64,000 nt of DNA, taken from positions 62,001 to 126,000 of the forward strand of contig JBBPTG010000035.1 in assembly GCA_038093975.1 (NCBI GenBank), written 5' to 3'. A model generated the notes under the pieces. It was not told where the DNA came from and did no database searches. It worked only from the letters and a program-made list of their open reading frames with translations. Shown piece after piece: positions 8,942 through 36,860 of the stretch (positions are counted from its first letter, which is position 1; every line of letters starts with the position of its first letter). A program made the translations under genes and the position numbers. Source of the stretch: Chalciporus piperatus. Its lineage: Eukaryota; Basidiomycota; Agaricomycetes; Boletales; Boletaceae.

Positions 8942-9045
8942 CATCTTTGTTGTAAAAAGTTTATACCCTCACACGTTCCGCATTCCTCACGTCGTTCATT
9001 CCTTTCTTTCACGGAGCTGGTATCCTTTGTGTATCATTAGTGGTA
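8942..9045 (+). repeat. short 3'-flank repeat, copy A
   Basis: About 104 bp beginning catctttgttgtaaaaag and ending cattagtggta. A near-identical inverted copy lies at 30420-30525. Here it follows the proline-rich gene and directly abuts the conserved flank of CHAT-A. In locus B the same piece lies on the opposite side of the CHAT gene. No coding potential is apparent; it resembles 3'-UTR or terminator sequence. Confidence 0.85.
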
Positions 9046-9268
9046 GGCTGTTGTACGTTTAGGAGCGATAAGTTACATGCATCATTTCACCCCTGGTGAT
9101 GAACGCTCTCGAGTCTAGAATCTCGAATGATGGAGGAAAGTGGGGCCCCTTGCGTTCGGATCACGAGACGTTTTCGACCGTCCCCTCGAATCCCCACTAA
9201 TGATGGTCTTGGCCGTTCTGCTCCAAGGTCCAAGTTCCGCGGCGAGCAAAGCGACCCATGAATCGGGG

Positions 9269-9303
9269 GCCATGATCACCACTGTGATAAGAAACAATCG
9301 ATA
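9269..9303. repeat. 35-bp micro-inverted segment, copy A
   Basis: In A this segment runs from gccatgatca to caatcgata, between aatcgggg and cccgcaaagc. In locus B the same outer borders enclose the reverse complement of the segment, with about four substitutions. The short GGGG/CCC borders form an inverted repeat. Confidence 0.8.
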
Positions 9304-11150
9304 CCCGCAAAGCACTCACTCTCCAGCGGTAGCGACGAGAAGACATGGTGGTCGGAGTTGTCTCCTCTCCGTCTGACGGAAGATCCGGTTGAATTGCTGA
9401 ACCATTGAGAAGGCGTGAAACCCGTCCGGGCGTAAAATGGCAGGGCTTATGGCTTCACGTCAATAGTAAGACGTAGACGTACATAGGGACCCACTCGGCG
9501 TACGTGGATAAGCGGGATGAGGGTGCTCGTCACGTCTCATGCATGTGTGGCGTGCACTGTTGGCACTGCCAATGTCACGGTGAGGCACTCTCATAAGATG
9601 GACGGCTAGAAGCCTGGACGATCCCTGAATGTGGGGTCAGATGAGATTGGACGAATGGAGGTGTAAAAGCTTGGATGATCTGGGGTGGTTCCCTGGTGAC
9701 AAGACACGTAATGTAGGAGCCCCCTTTCTGCGTGAATCTGACGTGGTAAAGTACTTTGTAGGTCGTCAGGGACACTATACATAAGTATGGAGACGCAGTG
9801 GACTCGTTCGACTTACTATGCCCTGCTAGGACCTGCGTCCCGTGGAACACCGTGAGACCGTGCTTGCCAAGGGTTGTCGGGTGCGCCAAAAGACCACTCG
9901 ACCTGCCACTGGACAGTGCAACGTGTCAGAGTCGCAGTGCCGGTCACGGTCTGGCCTGACGGACACTGACCCCGGCTGATTGATTAGATTTCCCTGTGCC
10001 ACTGATGAATTAATTGAAGGGAGTGTCACAGTGAGGGACTGGACATCGACTCTACCAGTTCCTCTTGAGCTGGTGGTGAGCAAAGCCCACCAACGCAGCG
10101 TGACGCTTACCTATGCCAGAAATCCCTAAGCTAGGCGGCAGAGGTGCCAGAGTGCGAGCGTAGTGAGTAAATACGGGACGTACAACACCGAGTTGTGTTT
10201 AAATCAATTAAGCCAAGCGATAACAATGGCTTTCGTACGTTTGGATGGATTTCGAGAGCAGTGGTGCGTGTATTTAATCAGAGTCCGGGAGCGTATTCTC
10301 TTTTCTGTGATGATTTACACGGTGGATCGACGCTTCGAGGCCTTGAGGGGTGTATACTTAGGTCGAGCGATGCCCCATGACACTAGCGGCTAGGAAGTGC
10401 GACAGGCGGGAAGCACCCTTCGCGAACATAAGGGAGGACAAGTCCTAGTGGAGGGTGAACGTTTGAACGACTGTCTTCATCCCGACTCTTGGGTCTGCTT
10501 GCGGACTAGTGGTTGAACCAATCACGGTTTCCCACGATGCTCCTTCCTCGACGCATCTTCATCACTTTGCTAGCACTGTCTTCCTACCTAAGGGGGAGAC
10601 TACACTTTGGGCTACCTGGGCAAAGTCTGGCAGACTACCTGTGCGTTCACGCGGTGTAGTGGATTTGAACCGGGTCACTGCACAAGTGACCCCAAGAGTG
10701 CGAGAAACGAGCTCACGACCCGCTGTTGACATTTCGTTTCCAAGACAGAAGGACAACAACGTCTGAAGTGCGCGAGACTTCCGGGAAGATATCCCAAGAA
10801 ACGAACTAGGCGCGTGATTGAGGTCAACATATTGTCAATGTATGTATGAACAATTGTCATGTGCACGGAGATATGCTCCAGAACGCATCGTGACTGAGTA
10901 CTGAGTATTAATGATTGTCCAGAACCCGAGCCAGCAGCGCTTTCTCCCAGCAAGTTCCCCCTCCCCACCAGCGTACGGTGCAATAAGCAAAGAAGCACAA
11001 CATCACATCAATTCAAGCAACTCGGAGCTTGGCTTGAAGCCCGAAGGCCGTACAGATACACGAGGAATCAAGATACTGTGCTGGGGAGGTCCTTTTGCCC
11101 GTAACCACCTTCTTCCCTTCCCTCTCTCTGTCCCCCGCGTACACGCGACG

Positions 11151-11197
11151 GTGAGTGGACTGTATGTGAGAACATCGTCGATACTCAACGCTCGTAG
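11151..11197 (+). other. conserved 5'-UTR intron of CHAT-A
   Basis: GTGAGTGG...CTCGTAG, 47 bp, with a CTCAAC branch-like site. The same intron occurs at 35149-35103 before CHAT-B. The conserved splice borders support the start codon chosen at 11284. Confidence 0.7.
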
Positions 11198-11283
11198 GTC
11201 TGACGCTGCTTCCTTCAAGAACACCATTTCCCCAATCAATCCATTTCATTCCCCACCTCCTCCCGCTCGTCCAGCCCACTGCC

Positions 11284-14200
11284 ATGTCTGAGATCAACGA
11301 GGAAATTTCTCGCCAGCGTGCTGAGTTAGCACTTCTCCCGCAAAGTCATCCTGACATGGCCAGGTCACTCGAGAGCCTCGCAGATGCTCTGCAGACTCGG
11401 TACGAAGAGCTGGGGGAGATACCCGACCTCGATGAAGCGATCACCCTCCACCGTAATACATTGGTGTTTCGTCCAGATGGACACCCTGATCGGTCCACGT
11501 CATTGAACAACCTCGCAGATGCCCTGCAGACTCGGTTTGAGGACCTAGGGGGGATACCCAATCTCGATGAGGCAATCACCCTCCACCGCGATGCATTGGC
11601 GCTTCGTCCGGACGGACATCCCGGACGATCCACATCATTAAACAACCTTGCAAGTGCCCTCAAGGCTCGGTTCCAGGAGCTGGGGGGGATTTTTGACCTG
11701 GACGAGGCAATTCCCCTTCACCGCAATGCATTGGCACTTCGTCCGGACGGACATCCCAAACGACCCACGTCGTTAAACAACCTCGCAAGTGCCCTCAAGG
11801 CTCGGTTCAAGGAGCTGGGGGGGATACCCGACCTCGATGAGGCGATCACCCTCCATCGCAATGCATTGGCACTTTGTCCGGATGGACATCCCAACCGGTC
11901 CTCGACATTGAACAACCTTGCAGATGACCTCCAGACTCGATTCGAGCAGGTGGGGGGGATGTCTGACCTGGATGAGGTGATCCTCTTCCACCGTGATGCA
12001 TTGGCGCTTCGTCCGGACGGACATCCCGGACGATCCACATCATTAAACAACCTTGCAAGTGCCCTCAAGGCTCGGTTCCAGGAGCTGGGGGGGATTTTTG
12101 ACCTGGATGAGGCGATTCCCCTTCACCGCAATGCATTGACACTTCGTCCGGACGGACATCCCAAACGACCCACGTCGTTAAACAACCTCGCAAGTGCCCT
12201 CAAGGCTCGGTTCCAGGAGCTGGGGGGGATGTCCGACCTCGATGAGGCGATCACCCTCCATCGCAATGCATTGGCACTTTGTCCGGACGGACATCCCAAC
12301 CGGTCCTCGACATTGAACAACCTTGCAGATGACCTCCAGACTCGATTCGAGCAGGCGGGGGGGATGTCTGACCTGGATGAGGTGATCCTCCTCCACCGTG
12401 ATGCATTGGCGCTTCGTCCGGACGGACATCCCGGACGATCCACATCATTAAACAACCTTGCAAGTGCCCTCAAGGCTCGGTTCCAGGAGTTGGGGGGGAT
12501 TTTTGACCTGGATGAGGCAATTCCCCTTCACCGCAATGCATTGGCACTTCGTTCGGACGGACATCCTGGACGAGCCACGTCATTAAACAATCTTGCAAGT
12601 GCCCTCAAGGCTCGGTTCCAGGAGCTGGGGGGGATGTCTGACCTCGATGAGGCAATCTCCCTCCACCGCAATGCATTGGCACTTTGTCCGGACGGACATC
12701 CCAACCGGTCCTCGACATTGAACAACCTTGCAGATGACCTCCAGACTCGATTCGAGCAGGTGGGTGGGTTGTCTGACCTGGGCGAGGCGATCTCCCTCCA
12801 CCGTAATGCATTGCCACTTCGTCCGGACGGAGATCCTGGACGATCCACGTCATTAAACAACCTTGCAAGTGCCCTCCAGACTCGGTTCGAGAAGCTGGGG
12901 GGGTTGTCTGACCTGGATGAGGCGATCTCCCTCCACTACAATGCATTGGCACTTCGTCCGGACGGACATCCCGAGCGATCTTCATCAGTGCATGGTGTTG
13001 CATCTTGTTTGCTTGAGCACCCTCAGGACTCCGAGACGAATAGGGAACAAGCATTCAATCTTTATTCCACACTCTCGAATGTGTCGCAATTGGTAACCTC
13101 AGCTGACCTTCCTGCTGCCCGAGCATGGGTTCGCGCGGCTGAAGAACTTGGACACCGTACGACACTCTCCGCCTATCAAACGTCACTCCGCATCCTTACT
13201 ACTCATCTCGCTGCTCTCCCGTGTTTACCTCAGCACCTCACTGTTCTAAAGGATCGCATGTCCTCCCTCGCAATGGACGCATTTTCAGCTTCCATCCGTC
13301 ATGGCACACTCATCGGTGCGGTCGAGCTCCTCGAACAGGGCCGTGGGGTCTTTTGGAGCCAGCTTACTCGCCTCCGTTCCCCTGTCGACGAGGTCATCGT
13401 TTCTGGAGACAATGGAAAGGTGTTGGGAGAAAGGTTCATGTCAGTTTCTCGTACACTTCGCAACATTCTTGATTCCAACCCTCAAGATGATCGGGCGTGG
13501 CACCTTACCAACGAATTGCGAGAGATAGTGGACGACATTCGCCAGCTACCTGGCCATTCACGTTTCCTCCTCTCTCCACAATTCTCCGCCCTTCAAACGG
13601 CTGCGAGTGACGGACCTGTCATCATCGTCAACGCCAGCCGGTATGGCTGCGACGCAATCATCGTTTTTCACGATAGAGAGCCCATCCACGTTCCTCTTCG
13701 AATCCAGAAACTACACGTCAAGGACTGGTCGGTGGATCTCGGCAAGATCACGAAGAAGGGCAAAAATCAAGACGTGCAAACAGAGCTGGTCGTGCTTTTA
13801 CGCGAACTCTGGGATGAGGTTGTTTCCCCGATTGTTCAGGTCCTCGATGAATTCTGTCCTCGTCGGTCAAGGATTTGGTGGTTGCCCACTGCCGAGTTTT
13901 CTCTCCTCCCTCTTCACGCCGCCGGGGAATACAGGCGGAACAAACCGCAATTCTCTGATCTCTACATCTCGTCTTACACCCCAACCTTGACTGCTCTCAT
14001 TCGCTCTCGACGACCATTGGAATCTATCACACGAACACCGCGTTTCGTTGCAGTGGGGATTGCAGAGACTCCGGGACAATCTACGCTCGCGCAAGTCCAT
14101 GCTGAGCTCGTCAGCATCAGGGAATCTGTCGCCGCTCACGCGACATTCACGTGCATCGAAGGCCAGGAAGCCCAAGTCGGCAGGGTTGGCCTAGAACTCC

Positions 14201-14631
14201 AACAGTGTGAATTCGTCCACTTTGCCTGCCATGGGATCCCGATGCCCGAACTACCTTTTGAGTCTGGCTTCGCACTCGGTGACGGACTTCTGAAGATTCA
14301 ACATATCATCCAGAACGACTTGCAACACTCCCGACTTGCCACCCTGTCCGCCTGTCATGCCACTGTCGGATACAAGGACAGTCCGGACGAGGCCATCCAT
14401 CTAGCTGCAGCGATGCAGTTTGTCGGTTTCCGTTCTGTCGTCGGGACGATGTGGGCGGTGGGGGATGCTGAAGCGAAGGAGATCATGGCGGAATTCTATC
14501 GGATCATGGTGGACAAGTCTGGACATCATGGTCTAGATCATACCCGTGCTGCGTTCGCGTTGCACAAGGCACTGAGGACTGTGAGGCTGTCGCTTTATCA
14601 GCGAATCTTGTTCGTGCACATCGGCGCGTAG
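11284..14631 (+). CDS. TPR-CHAT (caspase-like) protein, copy A
   Basis: A single-exon coding region of 1115 residues. Residues 1-47 form a leader, followed by 11 full 45-residue TPR-like units (consensus DLDEAI.LHRNALALRPDGH, then P.RSTSLNNLA..L.TRF) from residue 48, plus a partial unit to about 575. A linker with YSTLSNVSQ and LEQGRGVFWSQLTRL leads to a C-terminal CHAT domain (about 720-1115). The CHAT domain shows FVHFACHG (His about 983) and LSACHATVG (Cys about 1024), the His/Cys pair of the caspase-like clan CD fold, then VVGTMWAVGD and the end FVHIGA. CHAT domains in bacteria act as proteases in defence and cell death. In fungi the role is not established, and activity here is inferred from the intact dyad. 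The start is supported by its match to CHAT-B and by the leader intron. Confidence 0.9.
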   Translation: MSEINEEISRQRAELALLPQSHPDMARSLESLADALQTRYEELGEIPDLDEAITLHRNTLVFRPDGHPDRSTSLNNLADALQTRFEDLGGIPNLDEAITLHRDALALRPDGHPGRSTSLNNLASALKARFQELGGIFDLDEAIPLHRNALALRPDGHPKRPTSLNNLASALKARFKELGGIPDLDEAITLHRNALALCPDGHPNRSSTLNNLADDLQTRFEQVGGMSDLDEVILFHRDALALRPDGHPGRSTSLNNLASALKARFQELGGIFDLDEAIPLHRNALTLRPDGHPKRPTSLNNLASALKARFQELGGMSDLDEAITLHRNALALCPDGHPNRSSTLNNLADDLQTRFEQAGGMSDLDEVILLHRDALALRPDGHPGRSTSLNNLASALKARFQELGGIFDLDEAIPLHRNALALRSDGHPGRATSLNNLASALKARFQELGGMSDLDEAISLHRNALALCPDGHPNRSSTLNNLADDLQTRFEQVGGLSDLGEAISLHRNALPLRPDGDPGRSTSLNNLASALQTRFEKLGGLSDLDEAISLHYNALALRPDGHPERSSSVHGVASCLLEHPQDSETNREQAFNLYSTLSNVSQLVTSADLPAARAWVRAAEELGHRTTLSAYQTSLRILTTHLAALPCLPQHLTVLKDRMSSLAMDAFSASIRHGTLIGAVELLEQGRGVFWSQLTRLRSPVDEVIVSGDNGKVLGERFMSVSRTLRNILDSNPQDDRAWHLTNELREIVDDIRQLPGHSRFLLSPQFSALQTAASDGPVIIVNASRYGCDAIIVFHDREPIHVPLRIQKLHVKDWSVDLGKITKKGKNQDVQTELVVLLRELWDEVVSPIVQVLDEFCPRRSRIWWLPTAEFSLLPLHAAGEYRRNKPQFSDLYISSYTPTLTALIRSRRPLESITRTPRFVAVGIAETPGQSTLAQVHAELVSIRESVAAHATFTCIEGQEAQVGRVGLELQQCEFVHFACHGIPMPELPFESGFALGDGLLKIQHIIQNDLQHSRLATLSACHATVGYKDSPDEAIHLAAAMQFVGFRSVVGTMWAVGDAEAKEIMAEFYRIMVDKSGHHGLDHTRAAFALHKALRTVRLSLYQRILFVHIGA
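11425..12990 (+). repeat. 135-bp TPR coding repeat array with 405-bp higher-order period, copy A
   Basis: Eleven full 135-bp units encode 45-residue TPR-like helix pairs. Units 3-5, 6-8 and 9-11 form three near-identical 405-bp trios (about 11560-11964, 11965-12369 and 12370-12774). Each trio runs GGIF, then GGIP or GGMS, then the PNRSSTLNNLADDLQTRFEQ unit. This indicates recent in-frame amplification of a three-unit block. Confidence 0.88.
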
Positions 14632-14863
14632 TCTCGTTTGGTGATCATGTTGCTCCCTCTATGTACCACTAGCTATTAATATTTATTTTCGAGCATTTTG
14701 CTATGCGAAAGTTTTCTTTCTCTCGAATGTGAACATGTCTCATGGATATCGGAGAAAGGCAACAGATTTCAGGAAAACTAGTACATGGTACATACGGGGG
14801 GTCATTTGGTTATGTGGTCGTATCCACCTTCAATTGGAAAGCCATTGCGTTGCGGTCCGCTGG

Positions 14864-16337
14864 TTAGTCGTCCTGGAAGAAAATACCGTCAATCTCTAGC
14901 GGATGGAATGAAGAGTTGACGCGATGCTCACCACAGCAATTGTATCCTCCTCGCCATCCTCATCGAGAGGGTCCCAGGGCGTAGACGCATCATGCCAGCT
15001 GGGTTGTGGGTTAGTCTATAAACCGAGATCTGAGCATGAGAGCAGAATGTACTGACAGGTCGTCGCCTTCGGGAGGCTTCCCATAGTCTCGGAACCTAGG
15101 CATGTCAGGCCGGTTTCGGTGCTTTAGCGTGTATAGAGGAGTGAAGGGAAAATCGCTATCTTTCCCACACGCTTCGCGAGACTCGGAGAGATCGGACTGC
15201 ACTTCGGACTGCCAGTCGAACCCCAAACCGCCAGCCACGGTGGCACCGGGAACGTGCGCAGGGGCCCTCGCCACCAGCTGGAGAGAAACGCTCCCTTCGT
15301 CTGAGTTACCAAACCTTGTCAGCGGACGTGTAAAGAATATGGAATGACGAGGCGCTTACTCTTCTTTGAGAGATGCATCGTATATGCAGGACACATGTAC
15401 ACCTGGGTGACCAGGGATTTATCCTTGAGCAGCGGTATGTTGTAGAGATGTTTCAGCACCACATCCGGAGGAAGATAGCTGATCCGAGAGCGATACATGG
15501 CGAGGATAGCACTCCTTTTACCCTCCTTGAATGTCCCCTTTATATTGAAGGCTACATGCCTGCCACCCTCGATGTTCCTGTCATACACCAAGTGCCAGTG
15601 AGTAATAGCGATCTCGTAAAGAACACACGAGGGCGTACACTTCTGGTCCCACTTCAACGTTCGCCTTCGAGAAACCACTTGAGGCGAGAATGTATTTCTC
15701 CTCGAGTGGTCCATCAACGGGCCTGCAATTCGCCAAGGTGAGCCCTACGCCTGCTTTGTCTAGCTCTCTCTGGATTTCGGAATTATCGTAGATATTCCCG
15801 TCGACCCGGAGTTCGCCCGTTTTCTTGTCGATGGTGCCGTATGTTCCAACCTAGACAGGGCAAGTTCTGTGTTCAGGAATAGAGCATGCATCCCAGTAAC
15901 TTGGACACCAACTGTGATAGAGCGTGGGGGATCCCCGGGCCAGTTGGTCCAGTTGGAGGACGTTTGGTAGATGAGATCGACAAACTTTCGTCGAAGTTGA
16001 CGTTGATCCATGGGCTTTGACTGGGATCAATGGCACAAGTCAAAGAAGGAGCGCAAATACATATCCCCCGGCGTCTATCGCTAGATCGTGGAAGACGCAC
16101 CGATCTGGGTCGTAGATGCTGTGGTAGTCGTCCCTGTCGTAATTAGTCCTCAATTTCCGCCCTCAAGTTCTCGGTGGATCCGAATCCTCTCAACTCTTGC
16201 AGGTTTTTGCTTTCAGCGAAATTGTTCCTTGACGACTTCTTCAAGTTGAGCATTCGAGCTCCTGCCAGGGCTTCGATGTCGAACACTAGGTCTAACTCGA
16301 AGTCATTTAAGCCGAGAATCCGCGAACCTGCTGGCAA
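14864..16337 (-). CDS. Agaricomycete-type uncharacterised protein, multi-exon
   Basis: Exons that can be joined in frame are 15907 to about 16015, 15639-15850, 15360-15577, 15057-15300, 14932-14998 and 14864-14872 (TAA). They read RRKFVDLIYQTSSNWTNWPG, DPPRSITVG, YGTIDKKTGELRVDGNIYD, DGPLEEKYILASSGFSKAN, PLLKDKSLVTQVYMCPAYTM, then an acidic end EDTIAVDD. This motif order (DD[YF].SI.DP.RCVF.D, NW..W, V..YGTID..TG, V...Y.CP.Y..Y.S) belongs to a family I associate with mushroom-forming fungi whose function is unknown. The 5' part is unresolved. The frame of SRILGLNDFELDLVFDIEAL (16143-16337) and that of DDYHSIYDPDRCVFHDLAID (about 16130-16060) do not join cleanly, so there is a missed intron or a frameshift. 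A 57-bp piece of this gene is also found at locus B. Confidence 0.65.
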
Positions 16338-16570
16338 GCCTACTATGGCGAAAGCCAGTGGGATGATGGAGTAACAAGTCCAGCATATACATATACACTG
16401 CTTTGCCTTCTTCTTTATCGAATCTATATCTCTACGTCGCAGTAAATGTCGAAAGATGTACCAGTAGACTTCAACGAGCTAACCTGCGTTGCGCACAACG
16501 TCCGTTGTAGCCCCTACATCCCCATCTAGATCACAAGCATCACCACCGCACCCTCCATCAGCGTTTTTGA

Positions 16571-18905
16571 TCAGCTCCCCCCGCGTTTTTGTAAGACTCC
16601 TCCTAAAACAGCCACGGTCCCACTACACCACACAATCAGCACCCCGCCTCAACGCCGCCACCACCACCACCAACAATCCAAAAAAATCAGCACTCACCTC
16701 TTCCCCTCACCCCCTCCGGCCTAATCTGCAAACAACTCTGATGTATCAAATTCAACGCCTTGATCGCATCCCTCGCCTGAATGACACACGAGATATTGAT
16801 CTCGCTCGCGCCTTGACTGATCATCTCGATGTTGACGTTCCCTTGAGCGAGCGTTTGAAACATCCGGCCTGACATGCCTACTAATTTGCGCATCTGCTTG
16901 CCGACGAGCGAGAGGATCGTCATGTCGTTGTGGATGGAGACCTAGAGATACGGTTTCTTGTCAGTCAGAAGATCGAGAATCGAGAATCGAGGATCGGGGA
17001 TGGGGAACTGGAACTCACCGATCCAGACTTTTGAAGTTCAGCTACCAACCGATCCATAATCTTCCTCGACAAGGTATCCTCGATCGCCATACTAACATGC
17101 ACCTCGCTCGTGCTAATCAAATCAACCACCACCCCAAACCGATCCAACGTCCCAAATATCCTCGCCAAAAAACCATGCGAGACGCTCTTCCGATTCGAGT
17201 TCACGTTCAGAACGACGATACGTTCTTTTATGGTGACCGCGGTGGGTAAGCGATTGCTTTGTTGTATGCTTTCGGGGGAGGTGGTGATCGAGAGACTGCC
17301 TGTCATGTTGCCAGCTGGGGCGACGGTATCCGCGTTGGATTCGTCACCATCACCGATGACTTCGTCGGGATCTGGGTGAATGACCGTTCCGCCACCCCGA
17401 GGATTCTCCACGTTCTTTATCCTGATGGGTATTTTTCTACGAATAGCCTAGACGGAAACAAACGTTAGCAAGGGACCTGAGTCTGAGACGGTAGAACGAC
17501 CATGAAATAGAACCCGGACGAACCTGTTCCATGGTGAACGGATGAACGACTTCACTTCCGTAATATGTCAGCTCCGCGGCTTCGTCTGGCGATATCATTG
17601 GTATGAGCCGTGCGGTTGGTACTTTTCTTGGGTCGGCAGTGAATATCCCATCCACTTCTTTCCATATCTGAAGTTCGGACGCTTCGAGGCCAACAGCAAG
17701 CAGCGCCGACAGCAGATCCGTGTAACCTCTGCCAACCTGACGCAATAACGACCCCGGTACGGGACCAAAGAACCCTAAACAGAAACACGGATTGAATGAG
17801 CGGGATGGAGAGACGAGACGAGACATGGAACGACGAGACGTACCAGTGACGACGGGAACTCTTGGGGCACATTGTTTGATGCGTTCTCCAACAGCAGCAG
17901 CCACGCCATCATAAAACGATTGATCCAAGGAACCCTCTACGTTCCCGAGATCACCGTCATCTGGAACGGGTACGATATCTTCCAATGAAACATACTCGGC
18001 ATCTATGCCCTGCGTGAGATAAATATACCGCGTGAGTCCTGTTATCCCATTCGTGCATCGCTATGATGGGTTAAGGATACGTACCTGATCTCGAAGAATG
18101 GCCGTCACGAGTTTACATCCTAACTGTTCGCCAAAACCAACGATGCTGTCTCGCGACCGAGGGGATATCTCATCGATCACCTATCATATCCATCACAACA
18201 AAGCAAAGCCGTGAGCTCCCACACTGTTTCACGCAAAAGCAATGAACACTCACTTGAGCAGCATATAAAAATGCACGAAGCCAATCACAATCACGTTCTA
18301 TCTCCGCTTCGATCTCTCGAAGGATCTCCGGCGTCTGAATGGACGCTCTGGCTGCGCTAAGATGTTCAGCACGAATGACATCAACGGTGGAGCTGAATTC
18401 GGGAACGTTTTGTTCGGATCGAGTTGAGGTGAACGGGGTGAGTGGGGCGAATGCAGACGTTGGGGATGAGCTGCGCGTGCGAGGGGATGAGACCTCGGAC
18501 GGTCGACCAAACATGCCATTCGTGAGAGGGGTCATCGTTCCGGACCGAGAATGTATTTTGTTACGTGGTCGTTGTTTGGCTTCGGAAGCAGCTTTGAGTA
18601 ATAGGTTGGTCGTTCCGAGTGCTTTGGTGGACCCAGACCGAGCTGAGCAGACGACGGCGACTTTGTGTTGATCAATGTAGTTCCTACACCCGAGCGGTCG
18701 GTGTTTGATGAGCAGACGGGATGAAGTGGACTTACGAGACGATATCCCTTGCAATCTGGACAGCAAACTTGCCGACGCTGGTACCTCCAAACTTTTGAAC
18801 GAGCCATCGTGCGTCTGGATCGACAGTGTTCTGGTGCAAGTTCGGTGGTGTCGAAGGTGGGGAAGTGGATGATCCCGAGCTGGAGTCCACGTCTGATTCC
18901 GACAT
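16571..18905 (-). CDS. HOM3: aspartokinase (aspartate kinase)
   Basis: Catalyses ATP-dependent phosphorylation of L-aspartate, the first step towards threonine, methionine and isoleucine. The start at 18905 gives MSESDVDSSSGSS and then the kinase motif VQKFGGTSVGKFAVQIARDI. Downstream exons give KVAVVCSARSGSTKALGTTN, the substrate/ATP region GRGYTDLLSALLAVGLEASE, then QIWKEVDGIFTADPRKVP and DEAAELTYYGSEVVHPFTME. Two C-terminal ACT domains follow (RIVVLNVNSNRKSVSHGFLA; TILSLVGKQMRKLVGMSGRM with QGASEINISCVI), which is where feedback regulation by threonine is expected. A Ser/Pro-rich insert (SPRTRSSSPTSAF) sits between the first kinase exon and the rest. The exact 3' end is uncertain: a consensus donor (GTGAGT, near 16695) suggests a short last exon ending at 16571, otherwise the frame stops at 16687. 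Confidence 0.93.
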
Positions 18906-19621
18906 CGTGAAGTGAGTTGAAGGTCGAAGCTTCGTGAAGATTAGATTCTAGCAATCTCGAGTAGGTGAGCAGATCCCAAGTCACAGATATGCTCAACAAT
19001 GTTTTTGACTTTTGGCTCACGACACAAATCCTGGAATATGTGCAGTCAGTCGATGTTGGTAATAAAAACTGTAGATTCAAAAGTCAATGTAAAAACTCGA
19101 CCTCGAAGTGACTCATTGACCCGCTGTCAGTATGACCCCAGACACCTCTGGACAGCCGAACCCAGGATGCGCATTCGATCAGTACAATGTCGGCTTCACC
19201 CACCACTGTCAAGTCCAGGCATGAAAAATTAACAGGAAACTAATCGCCCCAGCCGATGAGGGAAAACTTAGCCCTCGACTCGGGACATTAGGATTAGGTG
19301 AACCAATGTCATCAAGCCGAAACTTGCCAATGACATCACCGAAACTTACAGTGAACTCAGGCTTCCCTCTGGCTCAAGCAGTGAGTCTAGATATCCAGAC
19401 TTTCATAAACTGAAGATGATTTGCTCTAGGTCGTGAAATAACAACGTCAACCGCATAGTACGCACATGCCCTGCCGGACGGTGTCTCCATCCCCACAACT
19501 TATATGAATCGAGCAATCAAATGCATGGATGATACACGTACGCTACAAACCAACGAACGGACAGCGTCAGTCGACGCTTCGACGAGTGTCAGGGAAACAC
19601 TGACCACGACTCGACCCCAAG
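18906..19621. other. intergenic, nothing recognised
   Basis: About 0.7 kb between the divergent aspartokinase start and the 3' end of the first small secreted protein gene. Short open frames only; no motif, RNA gene or repeat was recognised. The part next to 18906 is expected to hold the aspartokinase promoter. Confidence 0.5.
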
Positions 19622-20937: not shown

Positions 20938-22039
20938 ATGGATAGGGGTGCAAGGGCTTCCAACTCACCATCAAACATGCGGAATCGAGAGCCTACACCA
21001 CTTCCCCCAAATCCCTTTGCAGAAGGTGCATTGCAGGCTGCTTATCAACGCTGCCTTGCCCTGGAGACTGCAACCTCTCATCAAACTGGTCCTCCTTTCT
21101 CCCCCAAGGCTCCTCCTCCCATCATATATGCTCGTTTTCTTGGCCACCTGTTGTACTTGGCTCCCACTAGCACAGCCCAAGAACAACTCCAGCAGGAGAT
21201 CATGGCAGCTACATATAATTTCCAGCTCCTTAGACTTGGCAAGAAATACATGACCAATTCTCTCTATGCCTGTAAGTCAACACTTTCATTCTCTCAAGGT
21301 GTTCATTTCATCAACTTGATCTTGAAGTTCGACATGAAAGCACACCAGAAGCAATGAGCGAGGAGGATGAGGAAGCTAATCCATCAGAGTCCATTGTAGA
21401 ACATGTGTTTGGGTCTACAAAGTATCGGAAAGATGTATAGTTTCAATCAAGCTTTTGTAATCACCTCACTAACACTGAACTAGGTATTACTTCGCAGCAA
21501 TTATCACTGTTCAATAACTGACCAACTTGATTGTGATCATGGTGGCTACACATATGTAGTACCTGCACATATCATTCCCATTCAATGTTTCCATTCAACA
21601 AGCCTATGGGAAAACATCCTGAAGTTTACTGATCCCAATGCCATTGGAGATTTAAAAGGCAGTAACATTCATTGTTTGGAGAATCTCATTGCAATGACCC
21701 CACGATTATATGCTTATTTTGCTCATCTTTACATGTGGTTTGAGCCTATTGAAGTATTTATTTTGATGAGATTTTATCTCTGTTCAATATACTGATTAAC
21801 ATTTATACCAGGGTCAATTGAACACATACAGTGTTCATTTAGCTTGGGAAAAGCTAACAACAGGGAAGGGTCCCGACAAAATTCCTGAAGTTGTGACTTT
21901 CTCCACATCAACAAACCTCCCACTTCCTAACAGTGCATATATTGCACTTCATGCACTTTGCTGCAAGGTTACACTGATGTCTGGGGCACTGGAATATATT
22001 GAATGGATTGAGAATCCATATGCTAGGGGAGGATCATGA
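20938..22039 (+). CDS. HNH-nuclease-like protein, four exons
   Basis: Exons 20938-21271, 21328-21434, 21484-21753 and 21812-22039 join in frame to 312 residues. The N-terminal part is Pro-rich, then comes a helix-rich region (AQEQLQQEIMAATYNFQLLR). The core reads SNYHCSITDQLDCDH, VPAHIIPIQCFHSTSLWENI, then NIHCLENLIAMTPRLYAYFA and HLYMWFEP. The order AHI ... N-x-H-x-LEN ... H-LYMWFEP is that of the HNH-type domain common as stand-alone proteins in basidiomycetes. DNA cleavage is inferred only, and some catalytic positions are not certain by eye. Exons 2-4 are visibly richer in A and T than neighbouring genes, which may point to different origin or age. The frame is intact. Confidence 0.72.
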
Positions 22040-29700: not shown

Positions 29701-30235
29701 TTGTCGAGAGTAACGACAGCACATCCTGTGGATCAAAAACATAAGCTCGGATCTTCAGGATGGTCTTACGACCCAGCCTTGTCTAGATTCTAATCACCTG
29801 CGGAACCGTTGAATCCGGAGATGAATGATCGTCGTTCATCGGCTTTGGAAGGATACTCGCTGAAGTCTGCATGATCAAGGGCAGTCAACACCGATGTACC
29901 TGCAGACGCAAGTCCCACCCACGCTCGTCCTCACTAGGGACAACGAACGCTCCGACATTGTAATCTTGCTGCTGCAACAATGCCCGAAGACGTGCTAGCC
30001 GTTCGGAGGTGTCGACCTTCGCAGTTCCTAGAGCACCCATCGAAGCAGACGAGGAAGCGAGTCTGAGAGCAAAGTATTTGGAGTTGGATAGAGTGGGTTG
30101 TGTGAGAAGGGAGCGATATCGATGTAGTAGGAGTATTTGAGCATGTGCTCGTCCCTGTCTACACTGATGGTACCACATGCCTTCCGCAACCCGCTCCGGA
30201 ACAACTTCGGGACTCAGCCGAGTGCGGGGAAGCAA
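26791..30235 (-). CDS. AMPP: Xaa-Pro aminopeptidase P (peptidase M24B)
   Basis: Removes an N-terminal residue next to proline; a dimetal enzyme. The N-terminal creatinase-type part reads [49 protein letters not shown] and [17 protein letters not shown]. The catalytic M24 domain shows the metal ligands in order: [20 protein letters not shown] (two Asp), [17 protein letters not shown] (His), SNEPGYY (Glu) and [10 protein letters not shown] (Glu). It ends [11 protein letters not shown] with TGA at 26791. About 15 exons. Upstream of [13 protein letters not shown] is an Arg/Ser-rich stretch with few acidic residues ([20 protein letters not shown]) that looks like a mitochondrial presequence. The start could be 30235, 30178 or the internal MGALG. 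Two introns carry long G-rich runs on the plus strand. Confidence 0.92.
27064..27090 (+). repeat. G-quadruplex-type (GGGA)n tract in intron
   Basis: Five GGGA steps in a row followed by TGGGG, on the plus strand, inside the last intron of the aminopeptidase gene. This is the template strand for that gene. Confidence 0.8.
27300..27317 (+). repeat. 18-nt poly-G run in intron
   Basis: Uninterrupted G homopolymer within the next intron of the aminopeptidase gene. Its true length may be affected by assembly or sequencing error. Confidence 0.85.
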
Positions 30236-30419
30236 GTCAACTCAAACTGAAAGTCAACCTCGTCAAACTTCCTTTATGTAATTGCTCAGACGTGCTCGCA
30301 GGGGTCAGAATTTGTTTCACACCGAATCGCTTGCAAAGCCTGCACTGTGCTTGAGCTTGGACGACCTTGAAACCTGTGTAACGAAGTATCGCTGAAGATG
30401 CATCGTCTTCGTGCAGCAT

Positions 30420-30525
30420 TACCACTAATGATACACAAAGGATAGTACCAGCCCCGTAAAAGAATGGAATGAACAACGCGAGGAATGCGGAATGTGTGAG
30501 GGTATAAACTTTTACAACAAAGATG
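30420..30525 (-). repeat. short 3'-flank repeat, copy B
   Basis: Reverse complement matches 8942-9045 (catctttgttgtaaaag ... cattagtggta), with a few substitutions and small gaps. It lies downstream of CHAT-B, while copy A lies upstream of CHAT-A. Outside 30420 the similarity to locus A stops at once. Confidence 0.85.
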
Positions 30526-30578
30526 GACCAATTGAAGAGAAATACATTCTCGCCTCCAGTACTATCTCGAAGGCGAAC
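30522..30578 (+). pseudogene. 57-bp fragment of the Agaricomycete-type gene, fused at locus B
   Basis: Encodes DGPIEEKYILASSTISKAN, matching DGPLEEKYILASSGFSKAN of the intact gene (15715-15659, minus strand). The fragment has the same length (57 bp) with about eight mismatches by eye. On one side it is joined to the short 3'-flank repeat through the shared GATG. On the other side it is joined to the 3' end of CHAT-B through a shared AAC/GTT. It has no expression context of its own. Confidence 0.82.
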
Positions 30579-30582
30579 AAGA

Positions 30583-33500
30583 CTACGCGCCGATGTGTAC
30601 GAACAAGATCCGCTGATCAAGTGACAGCTTCACAGTCCTCAGTGCCTTGTGCAACGCGAACGCAGCACGGGTATGATCTAGACCATGATGTCCAGACTTG
30701 TCCACCACCATGTTCCGATAGAATGCCGCCATGATATCCTTCGCTTCAGCATCGCCTACCGCCCACATCGTCCCGACGACGGAACGGAAACCGACAAACT
30801 GCATCGCCGCAGCTAAATGGATGGCTTCGTCCGGACTGTCCTCGTATCCAACAGTGGCATGACAAGCGGACAGAGTGGCAAGTCGGGAGTGCTGCAAGTC
30901 GTACTGGATGATATGTTGAATCTTCAATAGCCCGTCGCCGAGTGCGAAGCCGGACTCGAAAGGTAGTTCGGGCTTCGGGATCCCATGGCAGGCAAAGTGG
31001 ACGAATTCACACTGTTGGAGTTCTTGGCCAACCCTGTCAACCTGGGCATCCTGGCCTTCGATGCACGTGAATGTCGCGTGAGCGGCGACAGACTCCCTGA
31101 TGCTGACGAGCTCCGCATGGACGTGTTCAAGCGTGGATTCACCGGGAGTCTCTCCATTCCCCACTGCAACGAAACGCGGCTTTCGCGAGGTCGAATCCAA
31201 TGGGCGTCGAGAGCGAATAAGAGCAGTCAAGGTTGGGGTATAAGAGGATACGTAGAGATCGGAGAATTTTGGTTTGTTCAGCCTGTATTCCCCGGCGGCG
31301 TGAAGAGGGAGAAGGGAAAACTCGGCGGTGGGCAACCACCAAATCCTTGACCGACGAGGACAGAATTTCTCGAGGACTTGAACAATCGGGGAAACAACGT
31401 GATCCCAGAGCTTGCGTAAAATCACGACGAGCTCTGATTGCACCTCTTGAGTTTTGCCCTTCTTCGTGATGTCGCCAAGATCCACTGACCACTCCTTGAT
31501 GCGTGCTTTCCGGACACGAAGAGGAACGTGGATGGGGTCTCTGTTGTAAAAAACGATGATTGCGTCGCAGCCATACCGGCTGGCGTTGACGATGATGACA
31601 GGTCCTTCGCTCGCTGCCGTTTGAAGGGCGGAGAAGTGTGGAGAGAGGAGGAAACGTGAATGGCCCGGTAGCTGGCGAATGTCGTCCACGATCTCTCGCA
31701 ATTCGTTGGTAAGGTGCCACGCCCGATCATCTTGAGGGTTAGAATCAAGAGTGTCACCAAGTGCACGAGAAACCGACAAGAACTTGTCTCCCAGCTCCTT
31801 TCCCTTGTCTCCAGAAACGATGACATCATCAAGAGGGGAACGGAGGCGAGTGAGCTGGCTCCAAAAGACACCACGGCCCTGTTCGAGGAGCTCGACCGCA
31901 CCGATGAGGGTGCCATGACGGATGGAAGCCGAAAATGCGTCCATCGCGAGGGAAGACATGCGATCCTTTAGAACAGTGAGGTGCTGAGGTAAACACGGGA
32001 GAGCGGCGAGATGAGTAGTGAGGATGCGGAGTGCCGTTTGATAGGCAGAGAGCGTTGTACGGTGTTCAACCTTTTCAGCCGCCCGAACCCAGGCGTGGGC
32101 AGCAGCCACGTTAGCAAAGGTTACTGATTGCGACAGATCTGAGAGTGTGGAATAAAGGTTGAATGCCTCTTCCCTATTCTTCTCGGAGTCCTGGGGGTGC
32201 ACAAGCAGGCAAGATGCAACACCATGCACTGATGAAGATCGGTCGGGATGTCCGTGTGGAAGAAGTTTTAATACAATGCGGTGGAGAGCGATCGCCTCAT
32301 CGAGGTCAGACACCCCCCCCAGCTTCCGGAACCGAGTTTTCAGGGCAATTGCAAGGTTGTTTAATGTCATGCATCGTTTGGAATGTCCGTCTGGGAAAAG
32401 TGCCAACGCGTTGCGGTAGAGGGCGATTGCCTCATCGAGGTCGGGTATCCCCCCTAGCTCCGAGAACCGAGTCTGAAGGGCAGTTGCAAGGTTGTTTAAT
32501 GACTTGGATCGTCCGGAATGCCCGTCCGGATGATGTGCCAATGCATTACGGTGGAGGGCAATGGCCTCATCAAGGTCAGACAACCCCCCGACCTGCTCGA
32601 ACCGAGTGTGGAGGGCACTCGCAAGATTGTTGGACAACTTGAATTGTCCGGGATGTCCGTCTGGAAAAAGTATCAATGGATCACGGAAGAGGGCAATGGC
32701 CTCATCAAGGTCATACATCCCGCCCAGCTCTTCGAATCGAGTACAGAGGGCACCTGCGAGGTTGTTCGATGACGTGGATCGTGCTGGATGTGCATCCGGA
32801 CAAAGAGCCAATGCACTGCGGTGGAGGGAAATTGCCTCGTCCAGATCAGACATCCGCCCCAGCTCGTCGAACCGAATACAGAGGGCATCTGCAAGGTTGT
32901 TTAACGACGAGGATTGGTTGAGATGTCCATCTGGACGAAGTGCCAATGCATTGCGGTGGAGGGCAATTGCCTCATCCAGGTCAGGCATACCCCCTACCAG
33001 CTCGAACCGAGTGCTGAGGGCAATTGCAAGGTTATTTAATGGCGTAGATCGCTTGGGATGTTCGGCTGGAAAAAGTGCCAATGCGCTGCGGTGGAGTATG
33101 ATCACCTCGTCAAGGTCGGAAATCTGTCCCCCCATGTCCTCGAACCGTATCTGGAGGGCATCTGCGAAGTTGTTTAATGACGTGGCTCGTGCGGGATGTC
33201 CGTCTGGACGAAGTGCCAATGCATCGCGGTGGAGGGCGATTGCCTCATCCAGGTCAGACATCCCCCTCAGCTCCTCGAACCGAATCTGGAGGGTGGTTGC
33301 AAGATTGTTTAATGACTTGGATCGTCCGGAATGCCTGTCCGGACGAAGTGCCAATGCATTCCGATGGAAGGCAATTGCCTCGTCCAGGTCAGACATGCCC
33401 CTCAGCTCCTCGAACCGAGTGTGGAGGGCATCTGCAAGGTTGTTGAACAGCTTGGATTGGCGGGGATGTCCATCAGGACAAAGCGCCGACGAGTTGCGGT

Positions 33501-35016
33501 GGAGGGCAATGGCCTCATCGAGGTCAGACAACCCGCCCACCTGCTCGAACCGAGCGTGGAGGACAGTTGCGAGGTTGCTCAATGACATGGATCGGCCGGG
33601 ATGTCTGTCGGGACGAAGCGCCAATGCATTGCGGTAGAGGACAATCGCCTCATCGAGGTCGGGTATTCCCCCCAGCTCCTCGAACCGAGTGTGGAGGGCA
33701 TCCGCGAGATTATTTAATGACGTGGCCTGATTAGGGTGTCCGTCCAGACAAAGTGCCAATGCATTCCGGTGGAGGGTGATCGCCTCATCAAGTTCAGACA
33801 TCCCCTCCACCTGCTTGGATCGAGTCTGGAGGGCAGTTGCAAGGTTGTTTAATGAGGCGAATTGTTCGGGATGTCCAGCGGAACAAAGCGCCAATGCATT
33901 ACGGTGGAGGAGGATCGCCTCATCCAGGTCAGACATCCGCCCCCCCAGCTTCTCGAACCGAGTGTGGAGAGCATCTGCGAGGTTGTTTAATGACGTGAAT
34001 TGTTCAGGATGTCCGTTTGGACGAAGTGCCAATGCATCACGGTGGAGGGCGATTGCCTCGTCCAGGTCGGGTATCCCCCCCAGCTCGAACTGAGTGTGGA
34101 GGGCATCTGCGAGACTGTTTAATGATGTGGACCGATCAAGGTGTCCGTCTGGACGCAGTGCCAATGCGTTCCGGTGGAGGGTGATTGCCTCATCGAGGTC
34201 GGGTTTCTCCCCTAGGTCCTCGAACCGAGTCTGCAGGGCATCTGCGAGATTGTTTAATGATGCGGATCGTCTGGAATGTTCGTCCGGACGAAGCGCTAAT
34301 GCATTGCGGTGGAGGAGGATTGCCTCATCCAGGTCAGAGATCCCCTTCAGCTCCTCGAACCGAGTGTGGAGGGCATCTGCGAGGTTGTTCAACGATGTGG
34401 ATTGTTCGGGATGTCCGTCTGGACGAAGTGCTAATGCATTGCGATGGAGGGTGATCGCCTCATCGAGGTTGGGTATTCCCCCCAGTTCCTCGAACCGAGT
34501 GTGAAGGGCATCTGCGAGGTTGTTTAATGGCGTAAATTGTTCGGGATGTCCGTCTGGACGAAGCGCCAATGAATTGCGATGGAGGGTGATCGCCTCGTCG
34601 AGGTTGGGTATCTCCCCCAGTTCGTCGAACCGAGTCTGCAGGGCATCTGCGAGGTTGTCCAATGATGTGGATTGTTCGGGATGTCCGTCTGGACGCAGTG
34701 CCAATGCATCGCGGTGGAGGGCGATTGCCTCATCGAGGCTGGGTATCCCCCCTAGGTCCTCGAACCGAGTCTGCAGAGCATCTGCGAGGTTGTTCAATGA
34801 CGTGGACCGATCAGGGTGTCCGTCTGGACGAAATACCAACGTATTGCGGTGGAGGGTGATCGCCTCGTCGAGGTCGGGGATCTCCCCCAGCTCCTCGTAC
34901 CGAGTCTGCAGAGCATCTGCGAGGCTCTCTAGTGACCTGGCCATGTCAGGATGACTTTGGGGGAGAAGTGCCAACTCAGCACGCTGGCGGCAAATTTGCT
35001 CGTCGATCTCAGACAT
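30583..35016 (-). CDS. TPR-CHAT (caspase-like) protein, copy B
   Basis: A single-exon coding region of 1477 residues from Met 35016 (MSEIDEQICRQRAELALLPQ), the position matching the start of CHAT-A. The longer frame from 35112 is rejected because that ATG lies inside the conserved leader intron. It has 19 full TPR-like units of 44-46 residues plus a partial unit, more diverged from each other than in copy A. The linker and CHAT domain follow and are very similar to copy A. FVHFACHG and LSACHATVG are both kept, so the His/Cys dyad is intact; the end FVHIGA is the same. The similarity to CHAT-A stops about 8 bp after the stop codon. Probable function as for copy A: a regulated protease with a TPR sensor or scaffold region (inference). 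Confidence 0.9.
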   Translation of the reverse strand: MSEIDEQICRQRAELALLPQSHPDMARSLESLADALQTRYEELGEIPDLDEAITLHRNTLVFRPDGHPDRSTSLNNLADALQTRFEDLGGIPSLDEAIALHRDALALRPDGHPEQSTSLDNLADALQTRFDELGEIPNLDEAITLHRNSLALRPDGHPEQFTPLNNLADALHTRFEELGGIPNLDEAITLHRNALALRPDGHPEQSTSLNNLADALHTRFEELKGISDLDEAILLHRNALALRPDEHSRRSASLNNLADALQTRFEDLGEKPDLDEAITLHRNALALRPDGHLDRSTSLNSLADALHTQFELGGIPDLDEAIALHRDALALRPNGHPEQFTSLNNLADALHTRFEKLGGRMSDLDEAILLHRNALALCSAGHPEQFASLNNLATALQTRSKQVEGMSELDEAITLHRNALALCLDGHPNQATSLNNLADALHTRFEELGGIPDLDEAIVLYRNALALRPDRHPGRSMSLSNLATVLHARFEQVGGLSDLDEAIALHRNSSALCPDGHPRQSKLFNNLADALHTRFEELRGMSDLDEAIAFHRNALALRPDRHSGRSKSLNNLATTLQIRFEELRGMSDLDEAIALHRDALALRPDGHPARATSLNNFADALQIRFEDMGGQISDLDEVIILHRSALALFPAEHPKRSTPLNNLAIALSTRFELVGGMPDLDEAIALHRNALALRPDGHLNQSSSLNNLADALCIRFDELGRMSDLDEAISLHRSALALCPDAHPARSTSSNNLAGALCTRFEELGGMYDLDEAIALFRDPLILFPDGHPGQFKLSNNLASALHTRFEQVGGLSDLDEAIALHRNALAHHPDGHSGRSKSLNNLATALQTRFSELGGIPDLDEAIALYRNALALFPDGHSKRCMTLNNLAIALKTRFRKLGGVSDLDEAIALHRIVLKLLPHGHPDRSSSVHGVASCLLVHPQDSEKNREEAFNLYSTLSDLSQSVTFANVAAAHAWVRAAEKVEHRTTLSAYQTALRILTTHLAALPCLPQHLTVLKDRMSSLAMDAFSASIRHGTLIGAVELLEQGRGVFWSQLTRLRSPLDDVIVSGDKGKELGDKFLSVSRALGDTLDSNPQDDRAWHLTNELREIVDDIRQLPGHSRFLLSPHFSALQTAASEGPVIIVNASRYGCDAIIVFYNRDPIHVPLRVRKARIKEWSVDLGDITKKGKTQEVQSELVVILRKLWDHVVSPIVQVLEKFCPRRSRIWWLPTAEFSLLPLHAAGEYRLNKPKFSDLYVSSYTPTLTALIRSRRPLDSTSRKPRFVAVGNGETPGESTLEHVHAELVSIRESVAAHATFTCIEGQDAQVDRVGQELQQCEFVHFACHGIPKPELPFESGFALGDGLLKIQHIIQYDLQHSRLATLSACHATVGYEDSPDEAIHLAAAMQFVGFRSVVGTMWAVGDAEAKDIMAAFYRNMVVDKSGHHGLDHTRAAFALHKALRTVKLSLDQRILFVHIGA

Positions 35017-36860
35017 GGCAGTGCGCTGGACGAGCGGGAGTAGGTGGGGAATGAAATGGATTGATTGGGGAAACGGTGTTCTTGAAGTAAGCCGCGTCAG
35101 ACCTACGAACATTCAGTATCGACGATATTCTCACATACAATCTACTCACCGTCGCATATATGCGGGGGACTGAGAAAGAGGGAAGGGCAGAATGTGGCTA
35201 CGGGGCAAAGGACCTCCCGCGAGGTAAGAACGTCGTGTTTCTTTGTTTATTGCACCGTACGTTGGTGGGGAGGGGGAAGTTGGGAGAAAGCGCTGCCGGC
35301 TCGGGTTCTGGACAATCATTAATACTCAGTATTCAGTACTCAGTCACGATGCATTTTTGAGCATATCTCCGTGCAAATGACAATTGTTCATACCTTGAAT
35401 GATACGTTGACATCAATCGTGCACCTCGTTCATATCTTCCCGGAAGTCTTGCGCACTGCAAACGTTGTAGTTAGGCTTCTGTTTTGGAAACGAAACGTGC
35501 TTGTGACTGACGACACTTACTTAGTCTGCCTTGGGTAGAAAGTGGTGGGATGAGCACCGTGGGAAATCGAGATCCCGCATGTCGAGTGATGCAGTCCGTC
35601 TTGTCTCCCTCATGCATAAGTATAAGTACGTTCGCGAAGGGTGCGTCAGGCCTCCCGCACCTACCTACTAGCCGCTGGTGCCATGGGGCATCGCCCGACC
35701 CCTCAAGAAGCGTCGATCCACCGTGAACACCTACGTTGCTTAAATTTAAACCATCACAACAAAGAGAATGCGCTGCCAGTGCTTTCCTAGCCCGTCATTG
35801 ATACACAAACCACCACTTCCGAGTCCTCGAACTCCATCCAACATACCAAGTCAGGGCAGTGTCAATGTCCAGTCCCCCACTGTGACACTCCCTCTGATTA
35901 ATTCATCAGTGGCACGGGGCCATCTAATCAATTAATCAGCGGAGGTCAGCAAGAGGTCAGTGTCAATCAGCACAGACCGTGCCAACCAATATGTACCGTG
36001 ACCCTGACACATTGCACTGACCACCAGCAGGTTGAGTAGTCCCATGACGCGTCCGCGTCAAGCACCGCACACCGTGTCTTGCTAGGCGCGTGTCTCATGG
36101 CGTCCCGCGGGGCGCACGTCCCAGTGCACAGTAAGTCGAACGAGTCCACTGCGTCTCCATATTTATGTACGTCCGTGACGACCTACACAGTATACCACGT
36201 CAGATTTAGGTTCACGCTGGTTCACGCAGCAAGGGGGCTCCAACATTACGTCTTGTCACCAACGAACCACCCCGGATCATCCAAGCTTTTACACCTCCAA
36301 TCGTCCAATCTTCTCTGACCCCACCATCAGCGATCGTCCATCTTATGAGAGTGCCTCACCGTGACATTGGCAGTGCCAACAGTGTACGCCACACATGCAT
36401 GACCCGTGACGGCCCTACGGACACCCTCGTCCCGCTTATCCACGTACTTATTGGAAACGACCAGTGGGTCCCTATGTGCGTCTACGTCTTACTATTGAGC
36501 CCTGCCATTTTACGCCCAGACGGGTTTCACGCCTTCTCTATGGTTCAGTAATTCAACCGGATCTTCCGTCAAACAGAGTGGAGACTCAACTCCAACCACC
36601 ATGTCTTCTCGTCGCTACCGCTAAAGGGTGAGTGCTTTGCGGGGCCATGATCATCACCGTGATAAGAAACAATCTATACCCCGATTCATGGGTCGCTTTG
36701 CTCGCCGCGGAACTTGGAACTTGGAGCAGAATAACCAAGACCATCATTAGCGGGATCAAAGGGGACGGTCGAAATCGCCTCGTGATCGGAACGCAAGGGG
36801 CCCCACTTCCAAGGGTGAAATGATGCGTGTAACTTATCGCTCCTAAACATACAACAGCCT
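35017..36860 (-). repeat. conserved upstream flank of TPR-CHAT gene, copy B
   Basis: Inverted copy of 9045-11283 with indels. Its outer end, aggctgttgt at 36860-36851, corresponds to A position 9045, the base adjacent to where the short repeat of copy B ends. Includes the leader intron 35149-35103 and the inverted 35-bp segment at 36644-36678. Beyond 36860 the similarity ends. No gene is supported inside it. Confidence 0.8.
36644..36678. repeat. 35-bp micro-inverted segment, copy B
   Basis: Relative to the duplicated flank, this segment is in the opposite orientation to its counterpart at 9269-9303, while the sequences on both sides stay collinear. Confidence 0.8.

What the first reader, a model, noticed from the sequence alone, without database searches (positions are those of the whole stretch)
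8942..36860. Locus B is an inverted, circularly permuted copy of locus A, suggesting reinsertion of a circular DNA
Seen in the sequence: B (30420-36860) carries flank + CHAT + a 57-bp piece of the gene downstream of A + the short repeat that in A lies upstream of the flank. The two outer ends of B map to adjacent bases of A (9045 and 9045/9046). The inner joint links A positions 15715 and 8942. A simple inverted duplication cannot give this order. A circle covering about 8942-15715, opened at 9045/9046 and inserted, gives it exactly, with one extra internal deletion (about 14639-15658). The size budget also fits: about 5.75 kb plus 8 extra TPR units (about 1.1 kb) minus flank indels of about 0.4 kb is near the observed 6.44 kb. 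Established precedent: eccDNA-mediated, permuted gene insertions are known in other eukaryotes. A tandem duplication followed by several deletions is the rival model.
Basis: partly seen in the sequence, partly recalled or inferred. Interest (0 to 1): 0.88.

Follow-up and report, generated by a model that had tools for sequence, protein, structure and literature searches.

The report
Fungal gene copy reinserted via circle
A mushroom-forming fungus carries a second copy of an immunity-type gene whose pieces are joined in rotated order, as expected if the first copy had once been a small ring of DNA that was cut at one point and pasted back nearby; such events are known in yeast, cattle and humans, and this is a clean, still-intact example.

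Summary
On the minus strand B reads A 9046-14638 | 15659-15715 | 8942-9045. B's outer ends fall on neighbouring bases of A; the inner joint 15715/8942 has a 4-bp microhomology (CATC), the deletion 14639-15658 a 3-bp one (GTT). In the 35.5-Mb genome 8942-9045 and flank 9046-10056 matched only A and B. A has the ancestral order on its downstream side: the 57-bp piece is exon of a conserved gene that follows CHAT in A, and that order recurs at two paralogous loci (C50, C26). A and B are sisters (dS 0.21; support 93/96, not decisive); eight alignable non-coding stretches fit one age; both frames are open. No target duplication, terminal inverted repeat or left-over tandem copy was found. In a block census one circle insertion gives the order; no single inversion, deletion or copy does. 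Best reading: a copied circle of A, closed by end joining, opened at 9045/9046, inserted between two genes 15 kb away. A tandem duplication plus two inversions gives the same order and is not excluded. The empty site could not be tested. New member of a known kind.

The parts
8942..9045 (+). Block a of the donor unit in A: 104 bp upstream of the CHAT flank; reappears at the far (3') end of B
   Evidence: only A and B matched in the genome
9046..11283 (+). 5' flank and promoter region of gene A; start of block b
   Evidence: 9046-10056 matched only A and B (40 of 95 candidates scored)
11284..14631 (+). Gene A: single-exon TPR-CHAT open reading frame, 1115 aa, about 12 TPR units of 45 aa
14639..15658 (.). 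Part of the donor unit that is missing in B (GTT microhomology at the joint)
   Evidence: present in paralogue C50c and partly in C26
14896..16011 (-). Downstream gene (relatives mostly in Boletales); exon model made by eye. Exon 15584-15850 holds the 57-bp piece 15659-15715
15659..15715 (.). 57-bp exon piece carried into B; 15712-15715 CATC is the closing microhomology with 8942-8945
30420..30525 (-). B copy of A 8942-9045 (outer end of B = A 9045)
30522..30525 (.). Inner joint A 15715 / A 8942 (circle closure), 4-bp microhomology CATC
30522..30578 (-). B copy of A 15659-15715
30576..30578 (.). Joint A 14638 / A 15659, 3-bp microhomology GTT (internal deletion)
30583..35016 (-). Gene B: TPR-CHAT open reading frame, 1477 aa from the homologous start, about 20 TPR units
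35017..36859 (-). B copy of A 9046-11283 (5' flank); outer end 36859 = A 9046 (36860 ambiguous)
30040..30419 (.). Left side of the inferred empty site: upstream region of a minus-strand aminopeptidase-P-like gene (start codon at about 30040, by eye)
   Evidence: one match in the genome
36861..37200 (.). Right side of the inferred empty site, next to a minus-strand gene at about 37000-37900 (by eye)
   Evidence: one match in the genome

Best explanation
B is a duplicate of locus A made through a circular DNA intermediate. Shown: the block order, the adjacent outer ends, the microhomology joints, that A's order downstream of CHAT is ancestral, and that both genes have stayed open. Inferred: a copied (not merely excised) segment 8942-15715 closed by microhomology end joining at CATC into a ring of about 6.8 kb; the ring broke once between 9045 and 9046, 2.2 kb upstream of the gene, and was ligated in reverse orientation into a double-strand break between two genes about 15 kb away, with no target duplication; 1020 bp behind the CHAT stop codon were lost by a GTT-microhomology deletion before or after insertion. 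Because the cut fell outside the gene, B arrived with about 2 kb of upstream DNA and evolved on as a second TPR-CHAT gene with a longer repeat array.
For: Order and joints. Outer ends adjacent, chance about 4e-4. Of the single events enumerated only the circle gives the order. Polarity: the 57-bp piece is exon of a gene with 39 database relatives, and CHAT-then-this-gene is collinear with A at C50c through A 15929 and, in four ordered pieces from A 10700 to 15560, at C26+. A-B sisters, 93/96. Eight non-coding stretches, picked because they align, have compatible divergence (chi2 11.4, 7 df, p 0.12; end pieces against flank p 0.22 and 0.51). No vestige of an extra unit in the window, so it passes the false-positive test of Takahashi and Innan (PMC7188851, parts 1 and 2 of 4 read). 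Joint scars resemble those reported for circle insertions in wine yeast (PMC3053389, passages) and human (PMC7450558, passages).
Against: No empty site, no relative and no circle was seen, and only one such pair was found. Microhomologies of 4 and 3 bp are also what template switching leaves. A tandem-duplication route with two inversions is formally equivalent, and a tandem-type joint exists elsewhere in this family (C239). B's 57-bp piece is no closer to A (7 of 57 differ) than to C50c (6 of 57 by eye; BLAST 62 columns at 88.7%), so a C50c-like source for that piece is not excluded. A-B sisterhood is not starred in the tree, and A-B dS 0.213 is only slightly below B-C239a 0.234 and above C239a-C50c 0.206. 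One flank stretch (9941-10056) is more diverged than the rest (20 of 116). Whether blocks a and b adjoined in the ancestor could not be checked: none of 9 other stretches has them.
Confidence: 0.74

Rival explanations
1. Tandem duplication at A (joint 15715/8942), then an inversion with breaks at 9045/9046 of the first unit and at the B site, then re-inversion by recombination between the now inverted 104-bp copies of 8942-9045. No free circle is needed.
For: Gives exactly the observed order in the block model. C239 shows a tandem-type joint of downstream-gene sequence to CHAT 5' flank.
Against: Three events instead of one, and recombination in a repeat of only 104 bp. No left-over of a second unit was found in the window, though this route would not have to leave one.
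Confidence: 0.13
2. Replication template switching (MMBIR/FoSTeS): a broken end at the B site copied 9046-14638, jumped to 15659-15715, jumped back to 8942-9045 and rejoined the chromosome.
For: Microhomology of 4 and 3 bp at the jumps; local, inverted copy.
Against: Does not explain why the last copied base is the neighbour of the first (chance about 4e-4), unless A was itself broken at 9045/9046.
Confidence: 0.08
3. Tandem duplication followed only by deletions and one transposition or inversion of the remnant. A three-step form: tandem duplication, inverted copy of a stretch across its joint, loss of the extra unit.
For: The family sits in local clusters with partial copies.
Against: In the block census no single non-circle event gives the order, and at two steps only two intermediates lead to it, each needing a second copy to land exactly at the first one's end. 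Three-step routes were not enumerated; the form named here would need both ends of the copied stretch at the same base of two units. No vestige of an extra unit in the window.
Confidence: 0.04
4. Assembly artefact or transposon movement.
For: None found.
Against: A and B differ at 141 of 1431 compared non-coding columns. No target duplication and no terminal inverted repeat (9 of 30 positions); ends not of Helitron type (recalled consensus TC...CTRR); ends and flanks matched nothing else in the genome.
Confidence: 0.01

Closest known systems
Circular-DNA-mediated segmental duplications in human (Chicote et al. 2020, PMC7450558, passages; Takahashi and Innan 2020, PMC7188851, parts 1-2 of 4)
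   Same: Order change A-B/C-D to B-A/D-C, base-level joints with microhomology-scale scars, donor and derivative can be told apart
   Different: There >20 kb (Chicote) or >1 kb (Takahashi and Innan) primate segments; here 6.4 kb in a fungus, inverted and on the same contig, with a complete gene under constraint and an extra 1-kb deletion
Region B of wine yeasts (Galeote et al. 2011, PMC3053389, passages)
   Same: Fungal, permuted insertions, non-homologous joints with little or no shared sequence (2-3 bases at four junctions)
   Different: There a 17-kb horizontally acquired segment with several insertions and a working replication origin; here a native locus, one insertion, no origin tested
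Bovine colour-sidedness translocations (Durkin et al. 2012; known here only from citations)
   Same: Circular intermediate inferred
   Different: 492 and 575 kb (as cited)
Fungal CHAT (caspase HetF associated with TPRs) proteins (PMC10197012, passages)
   Same: Pfam CHAT and TPR matches; His/Cys motifs kept
   Different: No NOD domain among the Pfam matches at E <= 0.001; function of A and B untested

Membership tests
Circle-mediated (permuted) duplication | Block order rotated relative to the donor, all blocks in the same relative direction | tested here: met
Circle-mediated (permuted) duplication | Outer ends of the derivative adjacent in the donor; donor ends joined inside the derivative | tested here: met
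   9045/9046 and 15715/8942; the donor ends are defined by the joint itself
Circle-mediated (permuted) duplication | No second flanking copy that would betray tandem duplication plus deletion | tested here: met
   (window); genome searches (in one search only 40 of 95 candidates were scored)
Circle-mediated (permuted) duplication | Donor and derivative polarity known | tested here: met
   Downstream side only: exon piece and paralogous loci. The a|b side has no outgroup
Circle-mediated (permuted) duplication | Empty acceptor site in an outgroup | not testable with these tools
   no relative of G000 held (note); each flank has one match in the own genome
Circle-mediated (permuted) duplication | A free circle exists or existed | not testable with these tools
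   needs Circle-Seq or inverse PCR
CHAT-TPR protein | CHAT domain above Pfam cut-off plus TPR array | tested here: met
   CHAT 100.3 and 115.6 bits against 24; TPR_12 132.8 and 174.8 bits against 30.1
CHAT-TPR protein | Catalytic His and Cys kept in both copies | tested here: met
   The H and C of HFACHG and the C of LSACHATVG are invariant in 12 of 12 aligned genes; which residues are catalytic is recalled

The most novel reading that the evidence does not exclude
The lineage-specific TPR-CHAT family of this fungus spreads repeatedly through circles or tandem rings that start in a gene downstream of CHAT and close onto the CHAT 5' flank: B (15715/8942) and the C239 locus (aspartokinase fragment joined to CHAT 5' flank and framed by direct repeats of that flank) would be two independent products, making ring formation a regular source of new immune-type genes.
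Probability: 0.15. Interest if true: 0.72.

Novelty: new member of a known kind. Interest (0 to 1): 0.5.

Why it matters
Circle reinsertion is often proposed but seldom caught with every joint readable. A survey of 306 Magnaporthe oryzae genomes found no eccDNA-mediated translocation, though the same pipeline recovered a wine-yeast case (PMC9694575, passages). [quoted passage not shown] It gives a concrete signature (neighbouring outer ends) for scanning gene families of mushroom-forming fungi.

Tried and rejected
Dispersed-repeat explanation of 8942-9045: rejected, only A and B matched. Retroposition: rejected, B carries about 2 kb of DNA from upstream of the reading frame and an antisense exon piece. 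Transposon ends or target duplication: none seen. Allelic or haplotype duplicate: no further copy of 8942-9045, of flank 9046-10056 or of the B-site flanks was listed (in one search 40 of 95 candidates were scored). First dS and tree run used minus-strand loci unturned and is void; one search replaces it. Pfam found no family in 15584-15850 or in the right-hand neighbour piece 37151-37465, so a WD-repeat look of the latter is by eye only. Tree rows: 12 genes out of the 72 CHAT-matching pieces (7 close, 5 outgroups); split or partial copies (C49, C26, C239c, C312, C156), C303, C197 and the weaker ones were left out. Divergence: eight stretches picked because they align; the poorly aligned parts of the flank were dropped.

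Literature: six searches. No listed title or abstract start described a permuted circle duplication in a basidiomycete; for most papers only the listing was seen, the lists were capped, and subscription journals are largely missing, so this is not a claim of priority.
Full report
What is in the sequence. The window (C35:62001-126000 of an unnamed 35.47-Mb assembly in 484 contigs) comes, by inference, from a basidiomycete near Boletales: the gene downstream of A has its best named relatives in Paxillus, Lanmaoa, Boletus and Imleria (Paxillus ammoniavirescens is placed in Boletales; the other names were not looked up). A (11284-14631, +) and B (30583-35016, -) are single-exon genes with a TPR array and a CHAT domain. 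Self-BLAST gives, reading B on its own strand, A 9046-14638, then 15659-15715, then 8942-9045. The outer ends of B are neighbouring bases of A. At 9045 the first copy stops matching at once; before 9046 the other matches by a single A. The joint 15715/8942 shares CATC, the joint 14638/15659 shares GTT.

More than chance. A query of 8850-9150 has 3 matches in the genome: itself, B's copy of 8942-9045, and B's copy of the adjoining flank start. Flank 9046-10056 matches only A and B among the 50 rows (40 of 95 candidates scored). With independent ends in a 6774-bp unit, a gap of at most 1 bp has a chance of about 4e-4. Divergence of eight non-coding stretches, picked because they align, fits one age (141 of 1431 columns differ; chi2 11.4, 7 df, p 0.12), although one stretch (9941-10056) is higher at 20 of 116; the two small end pieces do not differ from the flank (p 0.22 and 0.51).

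Which copy is ancestral. The 57-bp piece (19 codons, DGPLEEKYILASSGFSKAN) is inside an exon of the minus-strand gene downstream of A. An exon model of that gene (304 aa, by eye) finds 39 proteins at E <= 0.001, best 47% identity over 95%, and aligns along its length with the 9 of them that I tried. At C50 another CHAT gene (C50c) is followed by a relative of that gene; A 12973-15929 and C50:156160-159139 are collinear (85%). At C26 (plus-strand copy) A 10700-10950, 12465-14722, 14852-15181 and 15482-15560 follow in A's order. So A's order on the downstream side is old, and the joints of B that interrupt it are new. Of 9 other locus stretches compared, none has blocks 8942-9045 or 9046-10056; some of these stretches hold only about 1.5 kb upstream, but the genome search agrees. 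The upstream side thus has no outgroup.

Age and constraint. In a CHAT tree of 12 genes A and B are sisters (93/96, just short of the tree tool's mark for firm support); dS 0.213, dN 0.059. Pairs among the 7 close genes span dS 0.16-0.38, so A and B are not much closer than some other pairs. The event is one of the later steps of a lineage-specific expansion but not recent; I infer that the empty site has to be sought beyond the species. In the database search the best listed relatives outside this genome reach 58-59% in the CHAT part (2536 hits among 7994 scored candidates, 120 listed). Both frames are open, and the H and C of HFACHG and the C of LSACHATVG are invariant in 12 of 12 genes (catalytic role recalled).

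Insertion site. B lies between a minus-strand gene with a Creatinase_N_2 match (start codon about 30040 by eye) and another minus-strand gene at about 37000-37900 (by eye). Without B the gap would be roughly half a kilobase. No direct repeat of 4 to 12 bp frames B within 3 bp of its ends, and the ends are not inverted repeats (9 of 30 positions). Each flank has one match in the genome.

Mechanism. In a block model one circle insertion gives the order; inversion, deletion or direct or inverted copying of one run does not. At two steps without a circle only two intermediates lead to it, each needing the second copy to land exactly at the end of the first. Three-step routes were not enumerated; one that I built by hand, tandem duplication, inversion at 9045/9046 and the B site, re-inversion through the 104-bp repeat, gives the same order and cannot be excluded by sequence alone. 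Takahashi and Innan warn that tandem duplication plus deletion mimics circles when a second copy of a block flanks the pair; none is left in the window. The 57-bp piece is as close to C50c as to A, so its source is not certain. I put the circle at 0.74, the two-inversion route at 0.13 and template switching at 0.08.

Size budget. 6774 minus 1020 (deletion) plus 1080 (8 TPR units) minus 395 (flank, 2238 against 1843 bp) is 6439, against 6441 observed (30420-36860). The parts of A's flank that do not align to B hold dispersed repeats: 31 of the 50 rows fall on A 10430-10518 and 5 on A 10070-10129.

Against known cases. Human circle-mediated duplications and wine-yeast region B have the same order change and similar scars. 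Chicote et al. report four donor blocks whose complete coding genes gave coding paralogues, so a working gene copy is not new in kind. A search of 306 rice-blast genomes found none. This case is a new member of a known kind, notable for completeness, polarity evidence and its gene family.

Elsewhere in the family. At C239 a fragment like A 16418-17881 (aspartokinase gene; ACT domains, gene name by eye) is joined at 22150/22152 to the CHAT 5' flank and framed by copies of that flank (within 21520-22150 and 23520-23976). At C312 and C156 a 75-bp piece of the same gene follows a CHAT 3' end. These resemble B's joint in kind and are the basis of the bolder reading, which rests on one clear and one ambiguous case.

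Noticed in passing
L063/L064, G000:C239:21184-24108: An aspartokinase-gene fragment (like A 16418-17881, 82%) sits in the 5' flank of a CHAT gene, framed by direct repeats of that flank; looks like a collapsed tandem duplication or a ring integrated by homology.
   Followed up: partly
L050 (C312) and L051 (C156): CHAT 3' ends followed after about 40 bp by a 75-bp piece 96% identical to A 16866-16940 (aspartokinase-gene exon); the two contigs are 99.5% identical over 2210 bp.
   Followed up: partly
9266-9306 and 36641-36681: A 41-bp stretch of the shared flank is inverted between A and B (93% identity in the opposite direction).
   Followed up: no
10430-10518 and 10070-10129: Short dispersed repeats (31 and 5 of the 50 rows) in parts of A's flank that do not align to B.
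   Followed up: no
11393-12980 and 32237-34924: TPR arrays of 135-bp units; in A a 405-bp (three-unit) period scores best, a sign of recent unit turnover.
   Followed up: no
G000:C26:134088-139544 and 154141-159826: Another pair of CHAT copies in opposite orientation about 20 kb apart, like A and B; within the stretches held only the plus copy has sequence of the downstream gene.
   Followed up: partly
G000:C50:155788-156532: A 373-bp direct repeat at 99.5% identity just before and into the CHAT part of C50c.
   Followed up: no
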